In this document: positions 1 to 14,430 of the stretch, piece after piece
How the letters are laid out: every line of letters starts with the position of its first letter
Numbering within the stretch: the first letter of the stretch is position 1
Assembly: GCF_900636765.1 (NCBI RefSeq)
Contig: NZ_LR134313.1
Span: forward strand, 1,860,001-1,924,000
From: Neisseria canis
Lineage (GTDB): Bacteria > Pseudomonadota > Gammaproteobacteria > Burkholderiales > Neisseriaceae
DNA: 64,000 nt
Direction of reading: 5' to 3'
Made by a program: the position numbers and the translations under genes
Notes under the pieces: generated by a model
The model's database searches: none
What the model was told of the DNA's origin: nothing
Seen by the model: the letters and a program-made list of their open reading frames with translations, nothing else

Positions 1-60
1 CCACCGGGGATACCAGCCCCGGTGGGGCATGGTATTCCTTCACCAAAGAAAGGAAATATC
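1..60 (+). promoter_or_regulatory. Structured leader 1 (hairpin, loop-complement, SD)
   Basis: Hairpin arms at 1-9 and 17-25 pair over 9 bp. The segment at 7-14, which includes the loop, is complementary to 31-38 with one G-U pair. Segment 31-40 is also partly complementary to the ribosome binding site at 50-60. This is the first of 17 leaders with the same plan and different sequence. Confidence 0.75.
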
Positions 61-369
61 ATGAACATTTTAGAGAAACTCCGCAGCAATGCAACTTCGG
101 CAAAATATCAAGTATTCAACCCTAACGGCGCCGACTACCTTTTCGAAGGCACGCTTCTGTATCAGCATAAATCTGATGACGGTAAGCATGTTCTTGTTAA
201 GGTTTATGAAAGTCGGAAAGGCAAGTTTGTTGTCGAAGATAAAACTTGCAAACCGGTAAAAGTCCATGTTACCAGTGATTGGCTAAGTATATTTGGTACC
301 ATCGGCTATGATGAATGGGCCAAAAACATATACCGAGAACTCGGTATTGAGGAATTTCAAAGAATTTGA
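61..369 (+). CDS. Hypothetical protein, 102 aa
   Basis: I do not recognise this soluble protein, which begins MNILEKLRSN. The start at 61 is chosen because an AAGGAAATATC ribosome binding site precedes it, and because an upstream in-frame ATG would lie inside the structured leader. There is no signal peptide or membrane segment. It is the first gene of a two-gene unit with the frameshifted gene at 382, ended by the terminator at 661-682. Nothing in the sequence shows a function. Confidence 0.7.
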   Translation: MNILEKLRSNATSAKYQVFNPNGADYLFEGTLLYQHKSDDGKHVLVKVYESRKGKFVVEDKTCKPVKVHVTSDWLSIFGTIGYDEWAKNIYRELGIEEFQRI

Positions 370-381
370 AAGGAAACCAAA

Positions 382-635
382 ATGAGTGATCCTATTTTTT
401 TCAAAGACATCATCAAAGAATTTGAAAGCCTTTATGAATCTGCCATTCCAAATGTCAATGGCCTGGACCAACAAAAGTTTAAAGAAAAGAACAGTTATTT
501 TCAAAAATACTGGTTGATGACACGTCGCGTTTTCCTATGGGGTTTGTTTACATGGATGGCCAAACCCATGTGGATTTTCGGAATTGGTTACAGAAACACC
601 ACCCCGAACAGGAATATCTTGTGCCATCTTGTTAA
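382..635 (+). pseudogene. Frameshifted hypothetical gene
   Basis: The frame opened by ATG 382 (MSDPIFFKDI) is plausible up to about 480. It then runs through the terminator at 661-682, which real genes here do not do. From about 483 a different frame gives a convincing C-terminus, including FPMGFVYMDGQTHVDF, and ends with TAA at 633-635. One extra A in the A-run near 484-489 would join the two into a protein of about 84 aa. A -1 programmed slip is possible, but a disabling indel or sequencing error is simpler. The good ribosome binding site (GAAAGGAAACC) and position right after the 61-369 gene suggest it was once translated. Confidence 0.55.
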
Positions 636-660
636 TTATACCTGTGCCATGCGCAAGTTT

Positions 661-682
661 AACCTGCTTAAGCAGGTTTTTT
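661..682 (+). terminator. Intrinsic terminator
   Basis: A perfect palindrome AACCTGCTTAAGCAGGTT is followed by a T-run. It closes the 61-635 unit. Near copies at 3402 and 9566 end other units of this region. Confidence 0.8.
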
Positions 683-728
683 CAGACAGTTTTTAAGTAA
701 GGCCGTCTGAAAAAACCTGTTTTATGCG

Positions 729-797
729 CCGTCAGCCGCTCAGCTGACCGAATGCTGCCGTTAACCATCATTCAGCCGTTTCAATACGGCCACGGCT
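729..797 (+). promoter_or_regulatory. Three-hairpin element, copy 1
   Basis: There are three successive stems: GTCAGC 731-736 with GCTGAC 743-748, GAATG 750-754 with CATTC 769-773, and GCCGT 775-779 with ACGGC 786-790. The loop of the second stem carries the conserved CTGCCGTTAACCA. It lies between a terminator and the first leader of the next unit. The 636-932 gap holds the terminator, one AG-type uptake sequence, this element and leader 2. Confidence 0.65.
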
Positions 798-870
798 ATT
801 TATCAGTCTATAAAGCCTTTTGGAAGAAGCTACCACTAAATAGTAGTTTCTGCCCGATCAATTTTATTAA

Positions 871-932
871 CCCTTTGGGGATATCACTCCCCAAAGGGCA
901 CGGTATCCCCTTTCTTAAGGAAAGGAACCATT
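871..932 (+). promoter_or_regulatory. Structured leader 2
   Basis: Hairpin arms 871-880 and 889-898 pair over 10 bp. Segment 877-885, which reaches into the loop, is complementary to 902-910 over 9 bp with one G-U pair. A small hairpin CCTTTC/GAAAGG covers the ribosome binding site upstream of ATG 933. Confidence 0.75.
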
Positions 933-1676
933 ATGGGTACTGCAAATTTTTTATTTAACCACCGTTTAAATGTTGTGTCCGGACTGTCTGCCTGCGAGTT
1001 TGACTTTGAGTTATACAATGAAGGCATGGACGAAAACGACAAGCTGCATGAAGACGACTATGAAAGCCTTCGGAATATTTTAAACTTTCGTACGAAAAAC
1101 TTCATAGCAGACTTGAGATACAGAGCGGACGAACTGGGATCTGACAGAGGTGTTCCTCCGAAAAGCCACCGAGTTAACCGTTTATTAATCCGCTCTGACA
1201 TGATGTCGGCTCACGATAACGGGAAATATTCAGACCGTAATTTCGGCGGTATCAAACTGGCTGAAATTTGGACGGAAACCATGTTTTTTGGTGAAGTCAT
1301 CCGGTTGGAAATGGCGGTGGTTTTGCGCCACGGCTACTACGACGGCTGTAATCTTGATCAGTACATGGAACTGTCCATACCTGACATGGCATACGCTACC
1401 TTCGCAAACTACGGTGATGGTGATCCGGGAGAAGCTGTGGATTACATCATTGAAGAGTACGCTGATTACAGCATGGCAACCAAAGCCCAAACCTCCCGAT
1501 ACAGGCGCGGCATTGAAAACCGCTTACGAGCACTGGAACAGGTGCTTTGGCAGCGTTATGAACAACTTATTGAGCCATATTGCGAAGAGTATCGTGTATC
1601 GGCGCGTTTCAACAACGGTGAAACTTGGTATTCATACGGAGAGAAATATCATGCTTTCAGACTATCTGTATCTTGA
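933..1676 (+). CDS. Hypothetical protein, 247 aa
   Basis: This is an unrecognised soluble protein, rich in acidic and aromatic residues, with no signal peptide or transmembrane segment. An AAGGAAAGG ribosome binding site just upstream supports the start. The last 26 bases overlap the next gene (start 1651), which suggests translational coupling. It heads a unit running to the terminator at 3402. Comparable unknown proteins are common in cargo blocks of conjugative elements, but I cannot assign a role. Confidence 0.75.
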   Translation: MGTANFLFNHRLNVVSGLSACEFDFELYNEGMDENDKLHEDDYESLRNILNFRTKNFIADLRYRADELGSDRGVPPKSHRVNRLLIRSDMMSAHDNGKYSDRNFGGIKLAEIWTETMFFGEVIRLEMAVVLRHGYYDGCNLDQYMELSIPDMAYATFANYGDGDPGEAVDYIIEEYADYSMATKAQTSRYRRGIENRLRALEQVLWQRYEQLIEPYCEEYRVSARFNNGETWYSYGEKYHAFRLSVS

Positions 1677-1977
1677 CACAAGCGATAACTTGGGAGAGTG
1701 GCAGGAAATACTTGATTATTTAGAGCCAGGATCGACAGAAGATTTAATGGAGGATGTTTGGGCATTCGCCAAGGAGAATGAGGCAATGCCTCATTTCGGT
1801 AACATCTGCCAATTTATCGTTCTAGACCGCATAAAAGACGCTGTTGAGAAACGATGGCCTGAGTGTAAGGTTAATTACTTCGTTAATGCGATCGATACCC
1901 ATATCGCTCTTAATAATACAATTATCTGTGATTACAAGCAGTTTGAGGCAGCAATCGCTCAATACACTATTGCCTGA
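1651..1977 (+). CDS. Hypothetical protein, 108 aa
   Basis: The start at ATG 1651 (MLSDYLYLDT) is preferred over a much longer frame from 1288, because the longer frame would shadow the upstream gene. A GGAGAGAAATATC ribosome binding site lies just before 1651 inside the preceding coding region, and the two genes overlap by 26 bases. The protein is acidic at the N-terminus, soluble and of unknown function. It is the only gene in this unit without its own structured leader, as expected for a coupled partner of 933-1676. Confidence 0.7.
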   Translation: MLSDYLYLDTSDNLGEWQEILDYLEPGSTEDLMEDVWAFAKENEAMPHFGNICQFIVLDRIKDAVEKRWPECKVNYFVNAIDTHIALNNTIICDYKQFEAAIAQYTIA

Positions 1978-2003
1978 TTCTTCCCTGCAACTTTGTAATG
2001 TTA

Positions 2004-2061
2004 ACCCCGTCGGGGCATCAGTCCCCGGACATGATGCTCCGTTTATTTTTTAAGGAGCATC
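2004..2061 (+). promoter_or_regulatory. Structured leader 3 (exact anti-SD)
   Basis: Hairpin arms 2009-2015 and 2023-2030 pair with one bulge. Loop copy GGGGCATC (2012-2019) pairs with GATGCTCC (2033-2040). That segment is also the exact complement of GGAGCATC (2054-2061), which contains the ribosome binding site and touches ATG 2062. This is one of the clearest copies. Confidence 0.8.
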
Positions 2062-2598
2062 ATGATGATTTATACCGATGAAAAAACATTGAAAATCCAT
2101 ATCAGCAAAGAACCGAATCAAGGTCTGTTCGGCTGTGATTTAGTCAATCTCGGCGGAGAACTCGTTTTGGGTTTAACTCCGGAATTTGCCACTAAAGAAG
2201 CGGCTTTGTTTTACGCACTCACCGATAAAGCAGCTGGATTGTGTAATCCCGAAGAAAATACTGACCACTCTGTATTTGATGGTTTTTCATCCATGATTTT
2301 CGGTGATTACAGTTCTGCCGCATTTATCAGGGAAACCATATTAAGCCTGACTTTCGGCTACCGTTGCTCAGGAGTGTATTTGCACTGTGTAGCCAGTTTG
2401 GATAAGCAGCATTGGTATCTGTTTAATCTGATATTGGCACACTACCGAATCAAGGGTGAAAGTGAAGCCTTGAGGCGGATGGCTGAGCAGATACTGGAGC
2501 GATATCCGCGCTACCGTGAGTTTCCGATGTCAATTAACGGACAGGGTGGCGGCAAAACTGTTTTATCTATCGATCCAACCGCATATCTGCAATCTTGA
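2062..2598 (+). CDS. Hypothetical protein, 178 aa
   Basis: This unrecognised soluble protein begins MMIYTDEKTL; translation could start at the ATG at 2062 or 2065. The ribosome binding site GGAGCATC directly abuts the start and is the target of the anti-SD segment of leader 3. There is no signal peptide or obvious catalytic motif. A central stretch with several Cys and aromatic residues (GYRCSGVYLHCVASLD) may be part of a small globular core. It is the third gene of the 933-3373 unit. Confidence 0.7.
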   Translation: MMIYTDEKTLKIHISKEPNQGLFGCDLVNLGGELVLGLTPEFATKEAALFYALTDKAAGLCNPEENTDHSVFDGFSSMIFGDYSSAAFIRETILSLTFGYRCSGVYLHCVASLDKQHWYLFNLILAHYRIKGESEALRRMAEQILERYPRYREFPMSINGQGGGKTVLSIDPTAYLQS

Positions 2599-2643
2599 TA
2601 TAACGGTTTCTTCAAACCGGGTGCCCAGCACTTTTTCCTGCAA

Positions 2644-2701
2644 CCTTCGGGGACGACACGCCCCGAAGGGGGTGTCTCCATACCGACCACAAGGAGACAC
2701 C
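2644..2701 (+). promoter_or_regulatory. Structured leader 4 (exact anti-SD)
   Basis: Hairpin arms 2644-2652 and 2661-2669 pair over 9 bp. Segment GGTGTCTCC (2671-2679) is the exact complement of GGAGACACC (2693-2701), the ribosome binding region of the next gene. Its last six bases also pair with GGGGAC (2649-2654) in the hairpin. Confidence 0.8.
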
Positions 2702-3373
2702 ATGACAATCTGTAAAAATCGTCTTCAAATATCTTGCCCAACTAAAAAAATGGCAAAAGATATTCTTTGCCGACATTTTGAAAAGGGATACTTAGTCTAT
2801 GCAACACTTATTCCTGAGCCACAAGTGATGTGGACAAATTTAAATACATCTTTTTATCCAGAAATTTTAAAAATACTCAATGAAGATAGATCAATAATTG
2901 TAGAGCAATTATTTGAAAATCAGGACTTATTGAAGTATTTGAGTGAAAATGGATTTGACACTACATTAACTTTGGATACTCTCATAGATGCAGTTGAGTT
3001 GCCTTATCCGCCTTATTGTATTGGCCAAGACGAGATTGAGCTTCAAAACGTACTTAATCGAGTTGGACTGAGCAGAAGTAACGCTATTTGTATTAGGATG
3101 AATCTTAAGGATACAGGTTTTCCTACGCGATCAGAATGGCGTAAATCTAATTGGAACAGCTGTTTGAAGCCATATAAAAACACCGTGTGGCAACGGGGAC
3201 AATCCATAGCTTGCACATTTTCATCTGAAACTCCACCAATACCGGTGATCATTAAGCTAATGACCCTCTATCCGGCAACCGAAATAGTATATACATATAC
3301 GATGGACGGTAGTTCTGAAGAACAACGTATATACAAGCCTTCATTCGGTCAATATACGGAAAGTCATTCGTAA
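2702..3373 (+). CDS. YubB/DUF1281-like C-terminal domain protein, 223 aa
   Basis: The start at ATG 2702 is placed right after GGAGACACC; a longer frame would overlap the upstream gene. The N-terminal half is unrecognised. The last 75 residues or so (WRKSNWNS through PPIPVIIKLMTLYP to YTYTMDG) follow the same pattern as the C-terminal part of the proteins at 12781 and 13617, with a W-rich motif, then an SPP-like turn, then YP. I infer a diverged member of the ferredoxin-like YubB domain group found on plasmids. Base composition is lower in GC than its neighbours, which suggests separate acquisition. Confidence 0.6.
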   Translation: MTICKNRLQISCPTKKMAKDILCRHFEKGYLVYATLIPEPQVMWTNLNTSFYPEILKILNEDRSIIVEQLFENQDLLKYLSENGFDTTLTLDTLIDAVELPYPPYCIGQDEIELQNVLNRVGLSRSNAICIRMNLKDTGFPTRSEWRKSNWNSCLKPYKNTVWQRGQSIACTFSSETPPIPVIIKLMTLYPATEIVYTYTMDGSSEEQRIYKPSFGQYTESHS

Positions 3374-3401
3374 AGACGGTAATAGCTATTTTGGCTGATC
3401 G

Positions 3402-3425
3402 AACCTGCTCTTAAGCAGGTTTTTT
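3402..3425 (+). terminator. Intrinsic terminator
   Basis: AACCTGCT and AGCAGGTT form a stem with loop CTTA, followed by T6. It ends the 933-3373 unit and is followed by an AG-type uptake sequence. Confidence 0.8.
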
Positions 3426-3466
3426 CAGAGTGCTTGCTTTCAGGCCGTCTGAAAAAACCTGTTTTA

Positions 3467-3535
3467 CGGCCGACAGACCGTTATCTGTCTTTCGCGCTGC
3501 CGTTAAACACCGCGAGTCCCGCAAGGGATACGGCT
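3467..3535 (+). promoter_or_regulatory. Three-hairpin element, copy 2
   Basis: The stems are GACAGA/TCTGTC, then CGCG/CGCG around the conserved loop CTGCCGTTAAACA, then CCC/GGG. Compared with other copies, all three stems have changed on both sides while the second loop is kept. This is what covariation of an RNA structure looks like. Confidence 0.6.
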
Positions 3536-3544
3536 TTTTTTCAA

Positions 3545-3618
3545 TCCTGTCGGGAACATGCTTCCCGTAAGGGGCATGATTTCCTCTTGTTTTCAATCTT
3601 TTATAAAGGAGTAATGTC
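3545..3618 (+). promoter_or_regulatory. Structured leader 5 (diverged)
   Basis: The hairpin CGGGAA (3551-3556) with TTCCCG (3562-3567) is shorter than usual. Loop segment GGGAACATG (3552-3560) pairs imperfectly with CATGATTTCC (3575-3584). The GGCATG part can also cover the start region CATGCC. The ribosome binding site is AAAGGAG. Confidence 0.55.
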
Positions 3619-3870: not shown

Positions 3871-3887
3871 CCAATCTTTTCATTTAA

Positions 3888-3943
3888 CCCTGCGGGGCAA
3901 GCCCCGCCCGGGGTTTGCCCCGTTTTTCTTTAAGGAGAAATTC
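3888..3943 (+). promoter_or_regulatory. Structured leader 6
   Basis: The hairpin is GCGGGG (3892-3897) with CCCCGC (3902-3907). Segment CGGGGCAAGCC (3893-3903) pairs with GGTTTGCCCCG (3912-3922) over 11 bp with one G-U pair. The right arm is followed by a T-run, so this pairing also looks like an intrinsic terminator. The ribosome binding site is TAAGGAG. Confidence 0.75.
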
Positions 3944-6406
3944 ATGCAAACCCCAAATCTACCTAACGATTTCGATGAAAACCACTTAATCAGTAACGAA
4001 GAGCTTTATAAAGAACTGAGTGGTGTGATCTCTCATAGCCAACACCAAAACATCATCCGTGAGTTCAACAAGCTGATCGAAGAAGCCGTTGATACGGACG
4101 CTACCGCCGATTCGGATTCCGATATGCCGCTGACGCAGTTTCTCAGCGACTTCGGCGACAGCTTGTTTCAAACAGTCACAGAACAGAACCGACCTATCTA
4201 TTACGGTCAGACCTATCAACAAACCGAAGCCGTTCTCGATACTTTGGAGCGGCCGCTTTTTGCCGCTCAGCGCGAAGTGGTGCGGGCGGTGTTCCAGCAG
4301 CTTGCCGTCCAAGACAAGCCGGCTGCCATCATCAACGCTGAAATGGGTACGGGTAAGACCATGATGTCGATTGCGGCGGCGGCCGCGCTGCATCATGCCG
4401 GCCGGCACCGCACACTGGTGCTGAGTCCCCCGCACCTTGTGTACAAATGGCGGCGGGAAATCCTCAAAACTATCCCGGATGCACGGGTATGGATACTCAA
4501 CGGAACAGACACCTTGGCCAAGCTGTTGGAGATCCGCGCACTTGACCGCAAACCGGAAGTCCCCGAGTTTTTCATTATGGGGCGTGTACGGATGCGCATG
4601 GGCTACCATTGGCGGCCATCCTATGCGACGCGCCGCAGATGGATTCCTGGCGAGGGCGCTTCGGAAGGTTATGCTGTTACCGAGTTTTATTGTCCCAAAT
4701 GCGGTGGTGAAATAAGGGATGAAGACGGCCAAACATATGCGTCGGAGCAAAAGCTGAAAAATGATTTGGCCAAAAACCGCCGCTTCTGCAAGCGGGAACC
4801 CGTTAAGGGGCGGTTATGTGGTGAGCCGTTATGGACACTTTGCCGCAAAGATGTTTCCGAAGGTATCGCGCCTTCGGTATACGAACGCGTGCTCAGAACC
4901 GTCACATCGTTACCGGGCATCGGTCCTAAAACAGCGGAAAAACTCATCGGCCTGTATGGAGAGGAGTATCTGGCTTCCATTCTCGAAAACAACATTCAGG
5001 CGTTTTCGAATCTGATGGATGAAAGCGGAGACTTTCTGTTCAACGAACGACAGGCAGCCCGCATCGACCGTGCTTTGGGCAATGCCGAATTCAGCCTCGG
5101 ACGTGGCGGCTACCAGCCGACCGAATTCATCAAACGCTATCTGCCCAAGCATTTCTTCGGGTTAATGATTGTGGATGAGGGGCATGAGTACAAAAACTAT
5201 GGTACTGCACAAGGGCAGGCCCTGGGTGTATTGGCCCGCTGCGCCGAAAAGGTGCTCTGTCTGACCGGCACCCTGATGGGTGGCTACGCAGAAGACCTTT
5301 TTTATCTGTTATGGCGTTTATGGCCGCAGATGATGATTGAAGACGGTTACGTCTACAACAAAGCCAATACACTAGGCACGGCCGGCATGGCGTTTATGAA
5401 GCAGCACGGCGTATTGAAGGAAATCGTCCGTCATATTGGTAGGGAGTACAGTGAAGGGGCGTTCAGCAGTTCCAAAGCGGAGCGCAACCAAGTGCGCACG
5501 GCCAAAGCCCCCGGATTTTCGCCGTTGGGCATCATGCGCTATGTGCTGCCGATAACGGTGTTTCTGAAACTCCGTGATTTGGGCGAGGGTGTTCTGCCGG
5601 AATACCGGGAAGTTTTCCGGCCGGTGGAAATGACCGAAACCCAAAAGATGGAGTACGAACAGATGGAGAGAGAACTGCAAAAGCATCTCAAAGAAGCGCT
5701 TACTCATCATGACAACACCCTTACCGGCGTTGTAATGAGTGCTTTGCTGTCCTGGCCAGACTGCTGCTACAAAGAACAGGAGGTATATTGGCGCAGCAGC
5801 GGAAAAACACTGTACCGTACCGATGCGCAGTTTGAAGCAGACGAGTTGTCGCCTAAGGAAGCCGATATGCTCGATGTGGTGCAAAACAGTTTGGCCAAAG
5901 GCAGAAAATGCCTGGTCTATACGGTTTACACAGACACCCGCGACACCACAGGCCGTCTGAAACAGATACTCGAGCGGCACGGCATCAAAGCCGCCGTGAT
6001 GAAGGCATCCGTTAAAGCAGACGAACGCGAAGACTGGGTGGAAAACCAGTTGGAGAACGGTGTACAAGTGGTTATCTGCAATCCTGAGCTGGTGAAAACC
6101 GGCCTCGACTTGCTGGCATTCCCGACCATCTATTTCCTGCAAACCGGATACAACGTCTATACCCTGATGCAGGCTGCCCGCCGCTCATGGCGTATCGGCC
6201 AAAAGCTGGGGGTAGAGGTGTACTTCGCAGGTTACAACGGAACCGCGCAGCAAATCTGTTTGGAACTCATGGGCAAGAAAATCGCCGTCAGCCAATCTAC
6301 ATCCGGCGATATGCCTGATTCAGGTTTGGACATCCTCAATCAGTCCGAAGATTCGATCGAGGTTGAGTTGGCCAAACGCCTTATCGAGAAAGCCCAGGCT
6401 AATTAG
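3944..6406 (+). CDS. SNF2-like superfamily 2 helicase with zinc and HhH inserts
   Basis: This 820-residue protein is a DNA-dependent ATPase of the SNF2/RapA type. Motif I is MGTGKT (135-139 core), motif II is DEGH (412-415), and the C-terminal motif VI is QAARRSWRIGQ, close to the SNF2 consensus. Between motifs I and II sit a Cys4-like cluster (C251, C254, C283, C293) and a helix-hairpin-helix (LPGIGPKTAEKLIGLYG, 324-340), which suggests DNA binding. Such helicases recur in plasmids and integrative elements next to NPPY methyltransferases, as here (7665). Roles in DNA repair, replication or anti-restriction have been proposed, but none can be proved from sequence. The family call is firm and the biological role is open. 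Confidence 0.85.
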   Translation: MQTPNLPNDFDENHLISNEELYKELSGVISHSQHQNIIREFNKLIEEAVDTDATADSDSDMPLTQFLSDFGDSLFQTVTEQNRPIYYGQTYQQTEAVLDTLERPLFAAQREVVRAVFQQLAVQDKPAAIINAEMGTGKTMMSIAAAAALHHAGRHRTLVLSPPHLVYKWRREILKTIPDARVWILNGTDTLAKLLEIRALDRKPEVPEFFIMGRVRMRMGYHWRPSYATRRRWIPGEGASEGYAVTEFYCPKCGGEIRDEDGQTYASEQKLKNDLAKNRRFCKREPVKGRLCGEPLWTLCRKDVSEGIAPSVYERVLRTVTSLPGIGPKTAEKLIGLYGEEYLASILENNIQAFSNLMDESGDFLFNERQAARIDRALGNAEFSLGRGGYQPTEFIKRYLPKHFFGLMIVDEGHEYKNYGTAQGQALGVLARCAEKVLCLTGTLMGGYAEDLFYLLWRLWPQMMIEDGYVYNKANTLGTAGMAFMKQHGVLKEIVRHIGREYSEGAFSSSKAERNQVRTAKAPGFSPLGIMRYVLPITVFLKLRDLGEGVLPEYREVFRPVEMTETQKMEYEQMERELQKHLKEALTHHDNTLTGVVMSALLSWPDCCYKEQEVYWRSSGKTLYRTDAQFEADELSPKEADMLDVVQNSLAKGRKCLVYTVYTDTRDTTGRLKQILERHGIKAAVMKASVKADEREDWVENQLENGVQVVICNPELVKTGLDLLAFPTIYFLQTGYNVYTLMQAARRSWRIGQKLGVEVYFAGYNGTAQQICLELMGKKIAVSQSTSGDMPDSGLDILNQSEDSIEVELAKRLIEKAQAN

Positions 6407-6768: not shown

Positions 6769-6802
6769 TTTCTTACCGTACGGTCTAACCGTACTTTTTA
6801 CC

Positions 6803-6877
6803 AACCCTTGTGGGGAGCACGTACCCCCGCAAAGGGAGGCGTATCTCCACCGCGTTTTAAACGAAAGGAGATATTTT
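6803..6877 (+). promoter_or_regulatory. Structured leader 7 (anti-SD)
   Basis: Arms 6805-6815 and 6824-6836 form an imperfect GC-rich hairpin. TATCTCC (6842-6848) is the exact complement of GGAGATA (6867-6873), the ribosome binding region of the GTG-start gene. Loop complementarity is weaker in this copy. Confidence 0.65.
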
Positions 6878-7162: not shown

Positions 7163-7164
7163 AC

Positions 7165-7576: not shown

Positions 7577-7608
7577 ACCTTTTCAGACGGCCTTGAGCCG
7601 CTTCATCC

Positions 7609-7664
7609 AACCCTGCGGGGATCTTCCCGTTAGGGCAGGTCTCCGCTTTTTTATGGAGACCATT
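7609..7664 (+). promoter_or_regulatory. Structured leader 8 (exact anti-SD)
   Basis: CCCTGCGGGG (7611-7620) and CCCGTTAGGG (7626-7635) form an imperfect hairpin. Loop copy GGGGATCT (7617-7624) pairs with AGGTCTCC (7637-7644), and GGTCTCC is also the exact complement of GGAGACC (7655-7661) before ATG 7665. A T6 run follows the anti-SD segment. Confidence 0.8.
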
Positions 7665-8771
7665 ATGGAAAAAAACCATCTCATGCACCCCCGGGTGGCA
7701 AACAACCACCGGGACAACGGGTACTTCCCCACCGACTACGGCACTTTGCAGGCCATTGCCTCCAGGCTTACCGCCGACGGCGGACAGATAAGGATTTTCG
7801 ATCCCTGCTGCGGAGAAGGGCACGCCCTTGAAACGTTGGCCGGCTATTTGGAAGCAGGTGGTACGCAATGCCACAGTTTCGGAATCGAGCTGGATGCAGA
7901 GCGGGCAGAGGCCGCCAAAGGCCGTCTGAACCACGTTATCTGCGCCGACGTTGAAAACTGCACCATGCAGGCTGGCGGGGTAGGGCTGCTGTTTCTAAAC
8001 CCACCCTATGGCTTCACGGCCACCGATCAACTTTCCAACCTGCGGACCAAACGCCTCGAAGAAATATTCTTCGCCAAGACGTTCGGTACGTTGCAGGTAG
8101 GCGGCGTATTGCTGCTGATTGTGCCGGAGGCCGCGCTGACAGAGCACCTCACTTACGAAATCGCCACCCATTGCATCGACGTGCGGATGTTCAGGGCAGC
8201 TGTGGATACTTACCGCCAGTACGTCATCACCGCCGTGCGTCCGAAGAACAGGGCTACAATCGGCAAAAAGCTGGCTGAAGCCCAACAACGCCTGCTGATG
8301 GATTTTGCATCGGCACCCGGCTGCGAGACACCCGGTGATATTTTGTACCGCATCCCCGCCGTTACCGGCAAAACATTCCGCCCCATGAGTTTCAAACTTG
8401 AACAGAATATTTTGGCCGGCGAACTGAAGCAGCAGCGCAGTCGTACTTTATGGCCGCATTTCGGCCAATATTTCGGTGCGGCCGCAGCGGCGGAAAAAAG
8501 ACGGCCGTTATGCGCGCTCGGACAATGGCACGCAGCGCTCGCACTGGCTGCCGGTCAGGTAAACGGAATCGTTACCGCCGCCGACGGCCGCAGGTTGCTG
8601 GTCAAAGGCTCCACCCATAAAACCCGGGTGGAAACCAAGTCGGAAGAGTACGATGCCAAAGACCGGTTGATTGTTACCCTGACAGCTACCGATCGCTTTG
8701 TACCGAGTATCCGTGCGGTCAACCTGACTGAAGGATCCCCGGATTACGGCCGTGTACTGACCATCAAATAA
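7665..8771 (+). CDS. Class I SAM-dependent DNA methyltransferase (NPPY), DUF6094-like
   Basis: This 368-residue protein has a SAM-binding motif I (FDPCCGEGHAL, about 45-55) and the catalytic NPPY (112-115) typical of N6-adenine DNA methyltransferases. The downstream half is unlike restriction methylases and matches the plasmid/ICE-borne DUF6094 group. No restriction nuclease is adjacent, so it probably protects the element's own DNA or acts in its replication. The start at 7665 is chosen for spacing from GGAGACC, although ATG 7653 is also in frame. It shares a region, though not a unit, with the SNF2-like helicase at 3944, a recurrent pairing on conjugative elements. Confidence 0.8.
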   Translation: MEKNHLMHPRVANNHRDNGYFPTDYGTLQAIASRLTADGGQIRIFDPCCGEGHALETLAGYLEAGGTQCHSFGIELDAERAEAAKGRLNHVICADVENCTMQAGGVGLLFLNPPYGFTATDQLSNLRTKRLEEIFFAKTFGTLQVGGVLLLIVPEAALTEHLTYEIATHCIDVRMFRAAVDTYRQYVITAVRPKNRATIGKKLAEAQQRLLMDFASAPGCETPGDILYRIPAVTGKTFRPMSFKLEQNILAGELKQQRSRTLWPHFGQYFGAAAAAEKRRPLCALGQWHAALALAAGQVNGIVTAADGRRLLVKGSTHKTRVETKSEEYDAKDRLIVTLTATDRFVPSIRAVNLTEGSPDYGRVLTIK

Positions 8772-8802
8772 CGGCGGATTTACCGTCCGCATTGCTTTTA
8801 AC

Positions 8803-8860
8803 CACCCTGCCTGGCCTATCCCGCAGGGGTATATCCGGTGCTTTTTTGAAAGGATACATC
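8803..8860 (+). promoter_or_regulatory. Structured leader 9 (diverged)
   Basis: The hairpin is CCCTGC (8805-8810) with GCAGGG (8823-8828). GTATATCC (8829-8836) is close to the complement of GGATAC (8851-8856) in the ribosome binding region. A T6 run follows. The loop-to-downstream pairing is poor in this copy. Confidence 0.55.
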
Positions 8861-9221: not shown

Positions 9222-9274
9222 CCACCCATGGGGTCTGCCCCATGGGGCAGACCCTCTCTTTGAGAGGCCCTATC
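9222..9274 (+). promoter_or_regulatory. Structured leader 10
   Basis: CCCATGGGG (9225-9233) and CCCCATGGG (9238-9246) form a 9-bp hairpin with loop TCTG. GGGTCTGC (9231-9238) pairs exactly with GCAGACCC (9247-9254). A tight hairpin CCTCTC/GAGAGG (9253-9267) covers the weak ribosome binding site. Confidence 0.75.
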
Positions 9275-9703: not shown

Positions 9704-9733
9704 TTTACCAACCGTGCTTCGGCACTTTTTACC

Positions 9734-9794
9734 ACCCCCAAGGGGATATACGCCCCATGGGGCGGTGTATCCCGCTTCAATGAAAGGATTCACC
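9734..9794 (+). promoter_or_regulatory. Structured leader 11
   Basis: A near-perfect hairpin spans 9736-9762 with one mismatch. Loop copy GGGATATAC (9743-9751) pairs with GTGTATCCC (9765-9773) over 9 bp. GGTGTATCC also matches the ribosome binding region GGATTCACC (9786-9794) at 8 of 9 positions. Confidence 0.78.
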
Positions 9795-10452: not shown

Positions 10453-10522
10453 GCCGACAGACTGTCTTCTGTCCCGGATGCTGCCGTTAACCATCATTCA
10501 GCCGTTCAATACGGCCACGGCT
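10453..10522 (+). promoter_or_regulatory. Three-hairpin element, copy 5
   Basis: The stems are GACAG (10456-10460) with CTGTC (10469-10473), GGATG (10476-10480) with CATTC (10495-10499), and GCCGT (10501-10505) with ACGGC (10511-10515). The loop is the conserved CTGCCGTTAACCA. Confidence 0.65.
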
Positions 10523-10531
10523 ATTTTTATC

Positions 10532-10585
10532 AACCCCACGGGGCACCGCCCCGATGGGAGTGCTCCGTTTTCATGGAGAAAAACA
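10532..10585 (+). promoter_or_regulatory. Structured leader 12
   Basis: The hairpin lies around 10534-10557. GGGGCAC (10540-10546) pairs with GTGCTCC (10560-10566) with one G-U pair. Its CTCC can cover the GGAG at 10575-10578. A short T-run lies between them. Confidence 0.7.
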
Positions 10586-10951
10586 ATGTTTACCGACCCT
10601 TTAGGTTTTCATTTTCGCTTAGAACTGAGCGAAACAGAGCGCAACTGTATCCTAGCCGTGTTAGACGGTTTTATGGAAGGCGGCCCCGCCAAGCATAATG
10701 CCGTCGCACGGTTTCACGATGAAATGTATATTTCAACCCGCTATCAATTGTCGGATTCTTCCGTCCAGTTGGCACCGACCGAACAAGTCAAACCCGTTGA
10801 GGTTGGCCAAGCTCTTTATGAGCTGCTGTATGCCGTTTTATCCATACTGAAAACCGATATTGTGTTTTGGAATGGAAAGCCGTACACCATCGTTGCTTCG
10901 GCCGAAAATAACAGCTATGGATTGCTGGAAGTATTCGGCGATTTTCAATAA
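10586..10951 (+). CDS. Hypothetical protein, 121 aa
   Basis: The start at 10586 follows ATGGAGAAAAACA. The product begins MFTDPLGFHFRLELSETERN, is soluble and acidic, and has no recognised motif. It opens a three-gene unit with the two long members of paralogue family A (11019, 11865). Nothing supports a specific role. Confidence 0.65.
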   Translation: MFTDPLGFHFRLELSETERNCILAVLDGFMEGGPAKHNAVARFHDEMYISTRYQLSDSSVQLAPTEQVKPVEVGQALYELLYAVLSILKTDIVFWNGKPYTIVASAENNSYGLLEVFGDFQ

Positions 10952-10961
10952 CCATTTTTTC

Positions 10962-11018
10962 AACCCGTAGGGGATTACCCCTACGGGTAACCCCCTGCAT
11001 TTATTACAGGAGGTTATT
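10962..11018 (+). promoter_or_regulatory. Structured leader 13
   Basis: A perfect 10-bp hairpin pairs 10964-10973 with 10978-10987 around loop ATTA. GGGGATTAC (10970-10978) pairs with GTAACCCCC (10987-10995) with one bulge. The latter also matches the ribosome binding region GGAGGTTAT (11009-11017) at 8 of 9 positions. Confidence 0.8.
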
Positions 11019-11789
11019 ATGAAAAAAACACCTTATATCATTTGGTTTAACTCTGACTATGATTACGACAAATTATTGTCCGCCTTTGAACTCGTGAACG
11101 GTAAAGTTTATGAAGGTAACGGCGATGATACATGGCTGCTAGACATGGTCAACACCGACTTAAAGCAAAAAGGTTTTGAACCGGATACTGTTTCATCCGT
11201 TTTGACTTTAGAACAGTACCTTGTCAATGAAAACCTGCACGACATTACGCCTACCAAACATGCCAATAAGCATTCGGCTGTTGTCTATACCCATACGCCC
11301 ATGGACTGCATGGATTGGATCGATTTTTTCCGCCGGGAGGATTTCCATCACCGTGTTAAGCCTGATTATTGCAACGAGGTCTTTAGCGGCGTATTGCACG
11401 GAAGTGCTGATGTCACTTACGAGATGTTTAATGACATCTGTGCAAGGTACGGAGTTTCCGATGACGATCCGCCATTGGTGCTCCGCGACAGCTCCGTTCC
11501 GGGCTATACCGATATTGCCTATCTATTGAAAGACCGACCTTGCCAATCCGACCGTTCTGAGCAAATGTTTATCTATATGCAACAGTTGGATAGGGAAGAT
11601 CTCCGATGGCTTTATCGTCGGAATGTCGAAGCCATCAATCGCTGGATGGCTCAAACCAAGCTCGACCTTTGGGGTTATGCTGATGAAGGCAGAGAGGAAA
11701 GCAATTCATTAATTGATAAACTGGCCGACGTGGTTTGCAATTGGGCGGCCGAAATCGTTTGCCAAGTTGAGCAAGAACCGACCGACTGA
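11019..11789 (+). CDS. Hypothetical protein, paralogue family A (256 aa)
   Basis: The N-terminus is MKKTPYIIWFNSDYDYDKLL. The sequence shares with the 11865 product a central MD-WIDFF/MDYFQE block, a VPGYTDIAYLLKD / VPGFDDLSYLLKN motif and a DLRWLY-RN-RW block (about 190-215). It is soluble, with no signal peptide or known catalytic motif. Tandem paralogues with individual leaders suggest duplication of leader plus gene as one module. Function is unknown. Confidence 0.7.
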   Translation: MKKTPYIIWFNSDYDYDKLLSAFELVNGKVYEGNGDDTWLLDMVNTDLKQKGFEPDTVSSVLTLEQYLVNENLHDITPTKHANKHSAVVYTHTPMDCMDWIDFFRREDFHHRVKPDYCNEVFSGVLHGSADVTYEMFNDICARYGVSDDDPPLVLRDSSVPGYTDIAYLLKDRPCQSDRSEQMFIYMQQLDREDLRWLYRRNVEAINRWMAQTKLDLWGYADEGREESNSLIDKLADVVCNWAAEIVCQVEQEPTD

Positions 11790-11804
11790 TTGCTATTGAT
11801 ATTA

Positions 11805-11864
11805 ACCCTCGGGGAACCGGCCCCGAGTGGGCACGGTTCTCCTTTGTTTATGAAAGGAAGTTCC
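11805..11864 (+). promoter_or_regulatory. Structured leader 14
   Basis: CTCGGGG (11808-11814) and CCCCGAG (11821-11827) form a perfect hairpin. GGGGAACCG (11811-11819) pairs with CGGTTCTCC (11834-11842) over 9 bp with one G-U pair. The ribosome binding region AAAGGAAGTTCCG resembles the complement of the right arm. Confidence 0.8.
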
Positions 11865-12605
11865 GTGAAAACATTTATCATCACTATGAGCGTTGAAGAA
11901 GAATTGGCCGAGGCAGCAGCATTAGCATTGAATGGCCAAACATTTCCCGTGTCACAAAAGTGGCCGGCACTTTTGGATCAAATCAGCGATTTTTTATCTG
12001 ATAAAGGCTATCCGCCGGGCATTGCAGCCGATGCAACAGAGGTTAGCGAGTATATCCATCACAACACCATGTCAGACAATTGGCCGTACCGCGACAGCAA
12101 CATTTTCACAGCGGTCGTGTTTGCCGACGAGCCTATTTCGGTTGAGAAATGGATGGATTACTTTCAAGAAAGTTTTTTCTCCGACAAGCTCAGCCGCGAG
12201 CAAGCTGAGACCGTGTTTCTGTCTGTGCTGCCAGCTGAATCCATCCGTTATGAACTGCTGAAAGCACTATTGGATGATTACGAGGTGTATCAGCCGGAAG
12301 ATTTGATGCTATTGCCCGACAATACCGATGTACCCGGTTTCGACGATCTCAGTTACTTGCTGAAAAACTGTGATTGGAATGAAGGCAACGTCCGGCAGAT
12401 TATTGGCGGCTGGTCGGAAACCGATTTGCGTTGGCTATATGAGCGTAACAGGGATACGGTCAACCGTTGGTTGTCCGATCAACAGCTGCATCTCTTTGAG
12501 CTGTCTGACAGCCTTATTGAGAGTGGTAATTTGTGTCAAATCATTACCCGGAGATGGGCTGAAGCTACGGCAGATACGTTCTTTCAGCTCGCTAAAGCCC
12601 TGTGA
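11865..12605 (+). CDS. Hypothetical protein, paralogue family A (246 aa, GTG start)
   Basis: GTG 11865 is chosen because it follows GAAAGGAAGTTCC, and because translation from it (MKTFIITMSVEEE) aligns with the N-termini of the other two family members. The shared VPGFDDLSYLLKN and DLRWLYERN motifs are present. It ends the 10586-12605 unit. Function is unknown. Confidence 0.7.
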   Translation: MKTFIITMSVEEELAEAAALALNGQTFPVSQKWPALLDQISDFLSDKGYPPGIAADATEVSEYIHHNTMSDNWPYRDSNIFTAVVFADEPISVEKWMDYFQESFFSDKLSREQAETVFLSVLPAESIRYELLKALLDDYEVYQPEDLMLLPDNTDVPGFDDLSYLLKNCDWNEGNVRQIIGGWSETDLRWLYERNRDTVNRWLSDQQLHLFELSDSLIESGNLCQIITRRWAEATADTFFQLAKAL

Positions 12606-12611
12606 TATCCG

Positions 12612-12633
12612 CCACAACGTTTCAGGTTGTTTT
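12612..12633 (+). terminator. Short intrinsic terminator
   Basis: ACAAC and GTTGT form a weak stem followed by T5. It sits where the other units carry stronger terminators. Confidence 0.5.
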
Positions 12634-12637
12634 TCAC

Positions 12638-12706
12638 GGCTGACAGACCGTTATCTGTCCGAATGCTGCCGTTAACCATCATTCAGCCGTTCAAAACGGC
12701 CACGGC
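12638..12706 (+). promoter_or_regulatory. Three-hairpin element, copy 6
   Basis: The stems are GACAGA (12642-12647) with TCTGTC (12654-12659), GAATG (12661-12665) with CATTC (12680-12684), and GCCGT (12686-12690) with ACGGC (12696-12700). It is followed by a T-run and leader 15. Confidence 0.65.
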
Positions 12707-12716
12707 TCTTTTTTTG

Positions 12717-12780
12717 ACCCCTAGAGGGCGTATTGCCCCCTAGGGGTAATACGTCCCTGTTTTTTACAGGAGTAAAAACT
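12717..12780 (+). promoter_or_regulatory. Structured leader 15
   Basis: CCCCTA (12718-12723) pairs with TAGGGG (12741-12746), and GGG with CCC closes the hairpin. GGGCGTATT (12726-12734) pairs with AATACGTCCC (12748-12757) with one bulge. CCTG and CAGG flank a T6 run before the ribosome binding site. Confidence 0.72.
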
Positions 12781-13530
12781 ATGCCTAATCATGTTACCAA
12801 CATCATGACCGTCAAAGGTCCGGAAGAATCCGTTGCCAAGCTGAAAGCAGTATGGTTCCGGCACCAAGCACCTGACGGCAAAACCAATCCGGATTTGCCT
12901 GATATGTGCGTTGATTTCAACGGTATATTACCGATGCCTGACAGCCTGAACATTGAATGCGGTTCAACGTCCTCTTGGGCTGAAGACTGGCTGAAGTTGA
13001 AAGATGACTGGCTGCTTTCCGGTGCAGAAATGGAAAAACTGCTGATCACGCGGCGGTTGAAAGAACATTTTTCCGAGCACCTTAATTGGGAAACAGATAC
13101 GGTAGGCCGTCTGAAAGAAATGGTTGCCGGAGAACCCGGCCTGCTGTCCAAAATCGGCCTCAGCCAGCAGTATCTCGAGAAAATTCAGCATAATCTTGCT
13201 ATATACGGCTGCCCGACTTGGTATGAATGGTGCTACTGCAATTGGGGAACCAAGTGGAATGCTTACCATCAGTATCTGTCGGAATGGTCGGATACTTCAT
13301 TCTGTATCACTTTTGATACGGCATGGTCACCGCCGGCTCCGGTATTTTGTGCTCTGACCGAAGCCTTTCCTGATGTGGAAATGGAGATACTCTACATCGA
13401 TGAAGGTGGAGGGTTTGCCGGAACCTACACCGCTTCAGAAGGCTTCCTGGAAGACTTTCCCTGTGATGACAAAGATTTCAGAAGTTTTGCGGAAGAACAC
13501 TTCGGCTGGTCGTTTGATTATGACGAGTAA
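12781..13530 (+). CDS. YubB/DUF1281-like protein, 249 aa
   Basis: The N-terminus MPNHVTNIMTVKGPEE, then FNGILPMP, a central WYEWCYCNWGTKWNA and FDTAWSPPAPVF are typical of the DUF1281/YubB ferredoxin-like family found on plasmids and in phages. It is paralogous along its full length to the next gene (13617), which has MPNWCSNFIEIEG, FNGISPMP, WGTKWNA and FETAWSPPEGIY. The family has no proven function; its location on conjugative plasmids suggests establishment or anti-defence roles. It is soluble. The start is supported by CAGGAG. Confidence 0.75.
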   Translation: MPNHVTNIMTVKGPEESVAKLKAVWFRHQAPDGKTNPDLPDMCVDFNGILPMPDSLNIECGSTSSWAEDWLKLKDDWLLSGAEMEKLLITRRLKEHFSEHLNWETDTVGRLKEMVAGEPGLLSKIGLSQQYLEKIQHNLAIYGCPTWYEWCYCNWGTKWNAYHQYLSEWSDTSFCITFDTAWSPPAPVFCALTEAFPDVEMEILYIDEGGGFAGTYTASEGFLEDFPCDDKDFRSFAEEHFGWSFDYDE

Positions 13531-13554
13531 ACGTAAAGCACTTTTCTAATCTGT

Positions 13555-13616
13555 AACCCCTAGGGGCGGCTTGCCCCGAAAGGGCATACCGCCCCTGTTT
13601 TTTTAAGGAGACCGTT
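13555..13616 (+). promoter_or_regulatory. Structured leader 16
   Basis: The leader has a GC-rich hairpin around 13557-13584. GGGGCGG (13563-13569) pairs with CCGCCCC (13589-13595), and a T7 run follows directly, as in an intrinsic terminator. The ribosome binding site is AAGGAG. Confidence 0.7.
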
Positions 13617-14363
13617 ATGCCCAATTGGTGTAGCAATTTTATCGAAATTGAAGGCCCTGCCGCACAAATCGCAGATTTGGCCGGAAAAATCATTGTATAC
13701 GACCCCGAAACCGGTGATCCTAAGTTTGACTTTAACGGTATATCCCCTATGCCGGAAGAGTTGCTGTTTGAAGGACTGGATCATGTCAGCGAAAGTCTGC
13801 GTTTTTTCGGACTGGGTAACGACATGGTGGTGTCCGAATGTGAGAAATCACTATACGGCTACCATTACAAACTGCTTCAGGAGCAGCTCTCCCCTTGGCT
13901 GGATTGGCAATCGGCCACCGTGGCTGATGTCAAGTTACTGCTCGAACACGAACTGCATTTGCAGGATCTGTGCAAAATTAATACGGCTGTATTGAGACAG
14001 GCCCGAAGCAATATTGAGCGCTACGGTGATTTGAGCTGGTATTCTTGGCGTATCCGTCACTGGGGCACCAAATGGAACGCCGGTGAATGCCAATCGGCCA
14101 CCGTAACTGAAACATCCATCTTTATCGACTTTGAAACAGCTTGGTCGCCGCCGGAAGGCATTTACCGTGCCATCTGTGCGGCCTATCCGGAACTGTCGCT
14201 GAATGCGTGCTATATGGAGCTGGGCATGTATTTCGCCGGCCGTTACCACAACGTCGGAAGCGAACTGATCGATGCCATGTGTGAAGAAAGTGAAGTGCAG
14301 GCATTCTGTATCGAGCACTTCGGCATGACCGAAGATTGTTTCTCCGATGGGGACGAAGACTAA
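13617..14363 (+). CDS. YubB/DUF1281-like protein, 248 aa
   Basis: This is the tandem paralogue of the 12781 product, with the same signature blocks: MPNWCSNFIEIEG, FDFNGISPMP, WYSWRIRHWGTKWNAG and DFETAWSPPEG. The acidic C-terminus (CFSDGDED) resembles the FDYDE tail of its partner. The two genes have separate leaders of different sequence. The family is known from plasmids; the molecular role is unknown. Confidence 0.75.
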   Translation: MPNWCSNFIEIEGPAAQIADLAGKIIVYDPETGDPKFDFNGISPMPEELLFEGLDHVSESLRFFGLGNDMVVSECEKSLYGYHYKLLQEQLSPWLDWQSATVADVKLLLEHELHLQDLCKINTAVLRQARSNIERYGDLSWYSWRIRHWGTKWNAGECQSATVTETSIFIDFETAWSPPEGIYRAICAAYPELSLNACYMELGMYFAGRYHNVGSELIDAMCEESEVQAFCIEHFGMTEDCFSDGDED

Positions 14364-14378
14364 GCTATCTATTTTTCA

Positions 14379-14430
14379 ACCCGACAGGGACAACCCTGGT
14401 GGGTTGTTCCTTTTTAAAAGGAAAAAACTT
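14379..14430 (+). promoter_or_regulatory. Structured leader 17
   Basis: GGGACAAC (14387-14394) pairs with GTTGTTCC (14403-14410) with one G-U pair. The right arm plus T-run also complements the ribosome binding region AAAAGGAAAAAAC (14416-14428) with one or two mismatches. It is the last leader of the series. Confidence 0.72.

What the first reader, a model, noticed from the sequence alone, without database searches (positions are those of the whole stretch)
1..14430. Seventeen leaders with a conserved loop-to-downstream and anti-SD pairing scheme
Seventeen plus-strand genes (starts 61, 933, 2062, 2702, 3619, 3944, 6878, 7665, 8861, 9275, 9795, 10586, 11019, 11865, 12781, 13617, 14431) have the same 5' layout. 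A GC-rich hairpin comes first. Its loop plus the end of its left arm is complementary to a segment just downstream, which would give an H-type pseudoknot or an alternative stem. In many copies that segment also complements the Shine-Dalgarno region. Exact cases are 2033-2040 with 2012-2019 and 2054-2061, 2671-2679 with 2693-2701, and 7638-7644 with 7655-7661. The sequences differ between copies but the pairings are retained, which is strong covariation. A T-run often follows the downstream arm, so transcription attenuation is also possible. I do not recognise a named RNA family. It looks like an element-wide RNA switch that sets expression of the cargo genes together, perhaps during establishment after transfer.
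Basis: partly seen in the sequence, partly recalled or inferred. Interest (0 to 1): 0.95.

Follow-up and report, generated by a model that had tools for sequence, protein, structure and literature searches.

The report
Shared RNA switch of conjugative elements
Conjugative DNA elements of many proteobacteria carry the same small RNA hairpin in front of many genes of one block, each copy with its own matching pairing sequences that are predicted to hide the ribosome's landing site and to release it on a still unknown signal, so that a whole set of genes would likely be switched on together.

Summary
All 17 leaders share the order L (left-arm end + loop), R (right arm), D, Shine-Dalgarno (SD); D matches its own L and SD better than those of other leaders (0 of 20000 permutations). 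The genome has 20 copies, all within 18 kb of one MobH-type element. In 374 leaders picked by hairpin alone from 80 of 84 loci both pairings are again leader-specific, and so in 59 leaders from nine loci found without the helicase. Matches reach alpha-, beta- and gammaproteobacterial elements. Folding hides the SD by default (289 of 360). L:D is one continuous alternative stem, not a loop-only pseudoknot; enforcing it opens the SD. Blocking the conserved 5' CAACCC in silico makes L:D dominant in 66 of 101 Neisseriaceae leaders, 21 before, but frees the SD in few. Attenuation fails as a general reading. No Rfam family covers the leader; DUF3085 RNA ends in its first bases. Nearest precedent: the gonococcal-island traH switch, wired differently. 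Trigger and sign are untested.

The parts
1..60 (+). leader of gene 61 (its first 4 bases lie before the window, G000:C1:1859997): H1 1-9/17-25, loop 10-15 with 30-35
868..932 (+). leader of gene 933: H1 871-881/888-898; L 877-883 with D 904-910; 909-914 with SD side 920-925
2002..2061 (+). leader of gene 2062: L 2012-2019 with D 2033-2040; D 2030-2040 with SD and start 2054-2064
2641..2701 (+). leader of gene 2702: H1 2644-2652/2661-2669; D 2671-2679 with SD 2693-2701; loop 2655-2659 with 2672-2676
3542..3618 (+). leader of gene 3619: H1 3551-3556/3562-3567; loop 3557-3561 with D 3574-3578
3885..3943 (+). leader of the SNF2-type helicase gene 3944: H1 3892-3897/3902-3907; L 3893-3900 with D 3915-3922; D:SD weak
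6802..6877 (+). leader of gene 6878: D 6842-6848 with SD 6867-6873; weakest by covariance model (E 0.037 locally, 0.565 genome-wide)
7608..7664 (+). leader of DUF6094 gene 7665: D 7638-7644 with SD 7655-7661; L:D -12.0 kcal/mol
8802..8860 (+). leader of gene 8861: H1 8805-8810/8823-8828; D 8832-8836 with SD 8852-8856; L:D weak (-7.3)
9222..9274 (+). leader of gene 9275: H1 9225-9233/9238-9246; L 9231-9240 with D 9245-9254; 9253-9258 with 9262-9267
9732..9794 (+). leader of gene 9795: L 9743-9748 with D 9768-9773
10531..10585 (+). leader of gene 10586: H1 10539-10544/10548-10553; L:D -13.4 kcal/mol
10961..11018 (+). leader of gene 11019: H1 10963-10973/10978-10988; L 10969-10973 with 10992-10996; 10988-10992 with SD side 11012-11016
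11803..11864 (+). leader of gene 11865: H1 11808-11814/11821-11827; L 11814-11819 with D 11834-11839; 11840-11845 with 11853-11858
12715..12780 (+). leader of DUF1281_C gene 12781: H1 12717-12724/12740-12747; L 12729-12734 with D 12748-12753
13554..13616 (+). leader of DUF1281_C gene 13617: L 13562-13569 with D 13589-13596; D:SD weak
14377..14430 (+). leader of gene 14431: L:D weak (-6.4, rank 5); 14407-14413 with SD side 14417-14423
3944..6406 (+). SNF2/DEAD-type helicase, marker used to find related elements
7665..8771 (+). DUF6094 methyltransferase-like protein, marker of the element type

Best explanation
Each leader has the segments L, R, D and SD in this order, D mostly matches both its own L and its own SD, and the RNA is predicted to work as a translational switch in which L:R plus D:SD hides the ribosome site by default, while a still unknown factor bound at the conserved 5' CAACCC would likely weaken L:R so that L captures D and the SD is set free. 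Shown by sequence statistics: L:R, L:D and D:SD are kept leader by leader while the letters change; D positions are mostly shared by L:D and D:SD, so the two compete; a U-rich, G-poor edge ending in CAACCC is conserved just 5'. Shown by computation only: SD hidden by default, L:D opens it in part, blocking CAACCC shifts L:R to L:D. Inferred: that the regulated step is translation initiation, that something binds CAACCC, that the sign is ON when it does, and that the leaders respond together in a newly entered cell.
For: Own-against-swapped pairing: 17 window leaders; 374 leaders in 80 of 84 loci chosen by hairpin rules only, L:D -9.59 against -6.95 and D:SD -10.49 against -7.43 (10 permutations, sd of their means about 0.1), with L:SD and reversed-D controls close to their swapped values; 327 leaders outside W, L002 and L008-L010, z -34 and -28 (20 permutations); within ortholog groups, 73 leaders, all three pairings beat ortholog swaps (p 3e-5, 6e-9, 4e-4); 59 leaders from nine loci reached through the model and not through the helicase, 0 of 5000 for both. 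D:SD covaries by position in register, z 4.0-6.4 for the four bases after GGA, not in shifted registers (267 of 374 leaders usable). Default: P(SD core unpaired) below 0.3 in 289 of 360 leaders, 212 of 360 with swapped D. L:D enforced raises P(SD unpaired) from 0.14 to 0.38; above 0.5 in 84 against 11 of 328; more open by 0.2 in 185, less in 14. Blocking CAACCC raises L:D above 0.5 from 21 to 66 of 101, with swapped D from 6 to 19; blocking the 6 nt before it does not (17). No sigma-70 -10 box at the 5' edge. The model has no match just before the tra and mobH genes annotated in L007, L100, L102, L103, L116 and L117.
Against: The L:R + D:SD state is favoured by a median of 5.6 kcal/mol over the L:D state, so L:D needs help from something not identified. 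With CAACCC blocked the SD itself rises above 0.5 unpaired in only 8 of 101 leaders, 1 before (22 of 107, 2 before, with less upstream sequence). Blocking the 3' GGG of R did not flip the fold (L:D above 0.5 in 22 of 101), which does not fit a simple symmetric clamp. Blocking all of R flips SD exposure in 16 of 360, against 5 with swapped D. In the published parA switch of the gonococcal island, changes that weaken stem-loop 1 abolished expression instead of raising it (PMC8716806, section 16), so the sign cannot be taken from that neighbour. D:SD is weak in several window leaders. Part of the 5' motif, its CC and a non-G before it, was asked for by the detector; the U-rich part and the A before CCC (317 of 354) were not. 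No complementary small RNA stood out, and the one ssDNA-binding-like candidate protein is missing from 10 of 20 leader-bearing genomes.
Confidence: 0.55

Rival explanations
1. Transcription attenuator: L:D followed by the U run is an intrinsic terminator and L:R the antiterminator, so the leader would control read-through into each gene.
For: In Neisseriaceae leaders a T run of 4 or more is in 87 of 111 spacers (A runs 5 of 111), and in 67 of 94 leaders with a good L:D it starts 0-3 nt after D; even at 60% or more G+C runs of 4 T outnumber runs of 4 A by 28 to 1 of 158. The L:D gap is larger with a T run of 5 or more (-3.33) than below 4 (-2.09). A terminator-like scan finds 27 sites in 1-15000 against 17.6 in shuffles (sd 4.6), some in leaders, e.g. 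3892-3923 and 12726-12756.
Against: T runs of 5 or more are in only 12 of 158 leaders of 60% or more G+C, yet L:D specificity holds in leaders with T below 3 (z -13.3) and in G+C-rich ones with T below 4 (z -9.7). R lies between L and D and is made first, so L:D would form late (inference). D:SD would then have no role.
Confidence: 0.16
2. Static lock: the D:SD hairpin alone keeps expression of these genes low (for example against read-through from the chromosome), and L:D is a by-product without a switching role.
For: SD hidden in 289 of 360 leaders, and just as much without H1 (mean P unpaired 0.196 against 0.200). Nested folding rarely flips when R is blocked (16 of 360).
Against: L:D is the pairing with the largest own-versus-ortholog-swapped gap (-12.42 against -9.35), which is hard to explain without a use; the 5' edge is conserved.
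Confidence: 0.15
3. H-type pseudoknot: the loop of intact H1 pairs with D and this fold is read directly.
For: Loop with D of 4 or more Watson-Crick pairs in 137 of 374 (36.6%) against 15.4% in swapped controls.
Against: The same helices continue into the left arm (next 4 pairs Watson-Crick 0.535 against 0.332) and 90 of 137 start directly at the stem; with a few nt between R and D a 9-10 bp H1 is hard to span (inference).
Confidence: 0.07
4. Single-stranded DNA element: the hairpins act in the transferred strand (promoter or binding site), as suggested in print for the STAXI motif.
For: Some leaders sit before SSB, ArdC-like, RecT, nuclease and RadC genes; PMC2864571 (passages) suggests an ssDNA role for the STAXI motif near similar genes.
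Against: Fixed position before start codons and covariation with the bases after the SD core are RNA-level features; no conserved promoter box.
Confidence: 0.06

Closest known systems
traH 5'UTR RNA switch of the gonococcal genetic island (Ramsey 2015, not seen; as described in passages of PMC8716806)
   Same: Two stem-loops, the second hides the SD, and an alternative stem frees it when the upstream part of the first stem is unavailable.
   Different: In the traH leader read here (L106) the alternative stem is leg B with leg C (GGTTATAG/CTATAACC); here it is leg A with leg C. traH has no CAACCC/GGGG hairpin and gives no model match at E 0.05 in that genome.
parA 5'UTR RNA switch of the gonococcal genetic island (PMC8716806, passages and section 16)
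   Same: SD hidden in stem-loop 2; removing the inner legs raised LacZ about 400-fold in print.
   Different: No alternative stem was found by its authors, and weakening stem-loop 1 abolished expression there; the parA leader in the DSM 9188 genome (L089) has no CAACCC/GGGG hairpin.
Rfam RF02959 DUF3085 RNA
   Same: Its consensus ends in acauCAACCCacCGGG, which is the 5' edge of this leader, left unpaired in that model.
   Different: Its structured part lies upstream of the leader; H1, D and SD are not in it, and 0 of 13 leader-bearing genomes reach its cut-off.
Rfam RF01754 radC RNA and the STAXI motif
   Same: radC RNA lies directly upstream of three leaders in pKLC102; STAXI is described near similar genes (PMC2864571, passages).
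   Different: Separate structures; neither is reported in the window's leaders (radC).
anti-SD / anti-anti-SD riboswitches such as TPP thiM (recalled)
   Same: Same expression logic: a segment that hides the SD is captured by another.
   Different: No ligand pocket is apparent; only about 60 nt, up to some 20 copies per element, with gene-private pairing letters.

Membership tests
Any Rfam 15 family | score above a family's gathering threshold | tested here: not met
   Window at gathering: only two tRNAs. E up to 5 over 1-14800: only leader match gyrA, 18.7 bits against cut-off 45. L107 and L117, E up to 1: none at cut-off. L006 and L007: cut-off reached only by radC RNA upstream of leaders. 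Other loci not scanned (one search failed).
RF02959 DUF3085 RNA | upstream hairpins plus CAACCC tail, 40.6 bits | tested here: not met
   27.7 bits at one locus; 0 of 13 genomes at cut-off, 2 of 13 at E 0.1.
RF01754 radC RNA | 149-nt structure, 40 bits | tested here: not met
   None over cut-off in 7 Neisseria genomes; three copies over cut-off upstream of leaders in pKLC102.
GGI traH-type switch | second stem hides SD | tested here: met
   289 of 360 leaders by folding.
GGI traH-type switch | alternative stem of leg B with leg C | tested here: not met
   The leader-specific alternative is leg A (L) with leg C (D); traH itself B with C.
GGI traH-type switch | release when the upstream part of stem 1 is unavailable | tested here: inconclusive
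   In silico L:D above 0.5 rises from 21 to 66 of 101, but SD exposure above 0.5 only from 1 to 8 of 101.
Translational anti-SD/anti-anti-SD switch | one segment pairs either with SD or with an upstream segment | tested here: met
   D positions shared by both helices, 4 or more in 247 of 374; both pairings own-specific.
Translational anti-SD/anti-anti-SD switch | ligand or factor that moves the balance | not testable with these tools
   No candidate confirmed.
Intrinsic attenuator | U run directly after the alternative stem | tested here: not met
   Met in 67 of 94 Neisseriaceae leaders, but T runs of 5 or more in 12 of 158 leaders at 60% or more G+C, so not a feature of the whole family.
H-type pseudoknot | loop pairs downstream with stem 1 intact | tested here: not met
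   The helix runs on into the left arm.

The most novel reading that the evidence does not exclude
One conserved single-stranded tag (UUUYWUCAACCC) is read by one factor, of the host or of the element, that opens up to some 20 gene-private anti-SD locks at once in a freshly entered cell: a general establishment-phase RNA regulon of MobH conjugative elements across alpha-, beta- and gammaproteobacteria, built as an A:B / A:C / C:D switch not described before.
Probability: 0.3. Interest if true: 0.92.

Novelty: new variant of a known kind. Interest (0 to 1): 0.78.

Why it matters
If true, conjugative elements share a post-transcriptional layer of control that has been missed because its letters change from gene to gene while only the pairings stay. 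It would give a handle on how such elements time their entry genes, and a ready test object: in a genome labelled N. gonorrhoeae, 13 copies (14) cluster between a parA and a traH homologue, where a 2021 paper counts two RNA switches in the gonococcal island (PMC8716806, passages).

Tried and rejected
Promoter reading of CAACCC: no -10 box at a fixed distance and no excess of promoter-like sites (11 found, 18.7 expected). Coupling to translation of the preceding gene: distance from stop codon to CCC has a local peak at 15-21 nt but a median of 65.5 nt (316 leaders), so not general. A trans small RNA with GGGUUGA: no excess in the element. DUF3577 as the common factor: predicted SSB-like OB fold (mean pLDDT 86; top PDB matches SSBs, best E 4e-4, TM 0.35/0.51), no sequence match in the PDB, and absent from 10 of 20 leader-bearing genomes. 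Column-wise covariation on the MAFFT alignment A2 was diluted by spacer lengths (best z 2.84), so register-free swaps and anchored tests were used; R-scape was not available. In one search the folding constraints were not applied; one search replaces it. CsrA: one element encodes it; not pursued. The published parA result, which speaks against my sign, is told under evidence against; confidence was lowered from 0.58 to 0.55 for it.

Selections and drops: the loci are the best 80 of 487 confirmed relatives. The seed alignment used 51 of 67 drawn leaders. 374 leaders were kept from 2835 hairpin candidates by hairpin rules only; of these 107 lacked usable anchors, 14 an SD motif, 46 an SD motif or an L:D helix of score 6. 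Of 153 model matches 150 were aligned and 111 distinct ones kept, 107 and 101 of them. Of 70 matches 59 were kept. Of 22 genomes with leaders and no DUF6094 eight were looked at, nine loci. Literature: ten searches in an open-licence library; by their listings none describes this leader. Passages of three papers were read (PMC8716806, PMC4207684, PMC2864571), of the first also section 16; papers outside that library were not searched.


Full report
What was checked. The window is G000:C1:1860001-1924000 of a 2.57-Mb genome. The 17 claimed leaders were read and their stems listed mechanically. They share one layout: a (U-rich) CAACCC edge, a left arm mostly ending in GGGG, a loop, a right arm CCCC..GGG (R), a segment D, a spacer often with a T run, SD, start codon. 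D is complementary to left-arm end plus loop (L) and, with part or all of the same bases, to the SD and the bases after it. Swapping D between leaders, with segments set by hand, weakens both pairings: L:D -13.4 own against -8.1 swapped, D:SD -9.3 against -6.3, 0 of 20000 permutations each, while L:SD is reached by 839 of 20000. The finding's three exact cases are right. D:SD is poor in some leaders, notably 3944 and 13617, and L:D in 14431 and 8861.

Where it lies. The element has a MobH relaxase, TraK- and TraB-like genes of F type (below the NCBIfam cut-offs) and a TraG-like gene, the helicase and DUF6094 genes also seen in pKLC102, DUF3577 and DUF3275 genes and a CBASS-like operon as cargo. 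A covariance model of the hairpin (R1, 51 sequences, 8 pairs; 4 of the 17 window leaders in the seed) finds 20 leaders in the whole genome, all on one strand between 1,856,405 and 1,874,433, and two stray hits at E 0.34 and 0.62; the leader of gene 6878 has E 0.565 there, so it rests on its layout rather than on the model.

How widespread. Eighty loci encoding relatives of the helicase were fetched (the best 80 of 487 confirmed). A rough motif scan gave 494 forward matches in them and in two plasmid loci, against 130 on the reverse strand and about 61 in shuffles. A detector that uses the first hairpin only gave 374 leaders in 80 of 84 loci, including 11 of the 17 in the window. The model also finds leaders in plasmids of Enterobacter, Rhizobium, Vibrio and Shewanella, but none in a Thermoanaerobacterium plasmid with a related helicase. 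Of 60 genomes (own and relatives) 17 have at least one match at E 0.05, nine of them 8 to 22 matches. Of 150 genomes of the order 29 have matches at E 0.001, among them all 7 that have DUF6094. Eight of the other 22 were looked at (nine loci): one contig has the length of plasmid pSTJ2 of Sulfuricystis multivorans, found by protein search, which has MobH and F-type tra genes; a Simplicispira suum plasmid is similar. There leaders precede RecT, a PD-(D/E)XK nuclease, SSB (pSTJ2 only), an ArdC-like protein, RadC and genes of unknown function, and none precedes mobH, traW, traU, trbC or traN. A RecT, a PD-(D/E)XK (DUF3799), a ParB, an SNF2-type helicase and a DUF932 gene follow leaders in the other loci. 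What those other loci are was not settled.

Pairing evidence at scale. In the 374 leaders L:D is -9.59 own against -6.95 swapped and D:SD -10.49 against -7.43 (10 permutations, sd of means about 0.1), with L:SD (-4.46 against -4.17) and reversed-D controls close to their swapped values. Both pairings reach score 6 in 65.8% of leaders against 19.7% with swapped D. With anchors that do not use the tested bases, D:SD covaries position by position (z 4.0 to 6.4 for the four bases after GGA) in the expected register and not one base to either side; L:D signals (best z 5.7) are spread over registers (267 leaders). Orthologous leaders of Neisseriaceae show whole sets changing together, for example in the helicase leader GGGGACTGC/GCAGTCCCC/GGAGACTGC (L009) and GGGAACCC/GGGTTCCC/GGAGAACCC (L096); against ortholog swaps L:R, L:D and D:SD are better in 51, 59 and 44 of 73. 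Fifty-nine leaders from the nine loci not chosen by the helicase repeat both results, 0 of 5000 each, with the L:SD control at 3458 of 5000.

Structure. The loop:D helix runs on into the left arm (next four pairs 0.535 Watson-Crick against 0.332 in swapped controls; 90 of 137 start right at the stem), so L:D is one stem that excludes L:R. Folding gives a hidden SD in 289 of 360 leaders, 212 of 360 with swapped D. Enforcing L:D instead of L:R raises P(SD unpaired) from 0.14 to 0.38 and opens the SD (above 0.5) in 84 against 11 of 328; the L:D state costs a median of 5.6 kcal/mol. Besides stem letters and SD, the conserved stretch is UUUYWUCAACCC at the 5' edge, G-poor over 11 nt, without a -10 box (317 leaders); its CC was partly asked for by the detector, its U-rich part and the A before CCC (317 of 354) were not. 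Blocking CAACCC raises L:D above 0.5 from 21 to 66 of 101 Neisseriaceae leaders (6 to 19 with swapped D), lowers mean D:SD from 0.657 to 0.413, and leaves the SD itself open in only 8 of 101; blocking six bases further upstream, or the 3' GGG of R, has no such effect. These are equilibrium folds without pseudoknots, co-transcriptional order or ribosomes.

Mechanism. The commitment is a translational switch: L:R + D:SD = off; a factor at CAACCC weakens the outer part of L:R, L then takes D, SD is freed. The same trigger point, the upstream part of the first stem, is what PMC8716806 (passages) reports for the traH switch of the gonococcal island; the traH leader in the DSM 9188 genome shows a B:C alternative stem, here it is A:C. 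Against this sign stands the parA switch of the same island, where weakening stem-loop 1 abolished expression (section 16). Shown: pairings, competition for D, conservation of the 5' edge, distribution. Computed: default off, opening by L:D, shift on blocking CAACCC. Inferred: the factor, the sign, the joint response and its timing. The U run after D in many leaders could add attenuation there or serve translation; it is not a feature of the whole family.

Relation to known RNAs. No Rfam family covers the leader in the sequence scanned. DUF3085 RNA ends in acauCAACCCacCGGG as an unpaired tail, so that motif touches the first bases of this leader, but no leader-bearing genome of 13 reaches its threshold. 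radC RNA lies just upstream of three leaders in pKLC102, and the window has a repeated block in the same place that Rfam does not recognise. PMC2864571 (passages) lists radC RNA in its table and describes the STAXI motif near similar genes; the 2017 paper recalled as the source of the DUF3085 motif was not held.

Verdict. A real, widespread and, as far as ten searches of an open-licence library show, undescribed leader family, found by a correct observation; the kind of logic is known, the wiring and the many-copy, gene-private use of it are new. Trigger, sign and biological timing are open.

Noticed in passing
window 699-790, 3441-3530, 9607-9700, 10425-10520, 12611-12700: A second repeated intergenic block (GACAGAC..TCTGTC..GCTGCCGTTAACCATCATTCAGCCG), upstream of the leaders of genes 933, 3619, 9795, 10586 and 12781. 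It sits where radC RNA sits in pKLC102 but is not matched by Rfam.
   Followed up: partly
window 18557-22994: CBASS-like defence operon as cargo: DncV-like synthase, Cap3-like and Cap2/ThiF-like proteins, patatin-like protein.
   Followed up: no
L002:16470-17201 and relatives: DUF3577/STY4534-family protein is predicted to have an SSB-like OB fold (model of the L099 relative), with a Gln-rich tail in this copy.
   Followed up: partly
L008, L089, L106 (genome labelled Neisseria gonorrhoeae DSM 9188): Thirteen or fourteen leaders cluster between a parA and a traH homologue; the parA and traH leaders themselves are of other types.
   Followed up: partly
L100:22093-22290: The Enterobacter ludwigii element encodes a CsrA, an RNA-binding regulator, next to its tra genes.
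   Followed up: no
L107-L117: Leader clusters in genomes without DUF6094; the two that could be named are MobH plasmids with AcaB/FlhC-type regulators and recombination genes.
   Followed up: partly
window 51404-51605: Two tRNA genes in tandem with the same stretch inside both, near the far end of the element, a possible attachment site.
   Followed up: no
window 670-722, 6627-6685, 9577-9630, 10396-10447: Rfam microRNA-precursor matches far below their cut-offs are inverted GCCGTCTGAA repeats, which look like Neisseria uptake-sequence terminators (recalled), not RNAs of those families.
   Followed up: no
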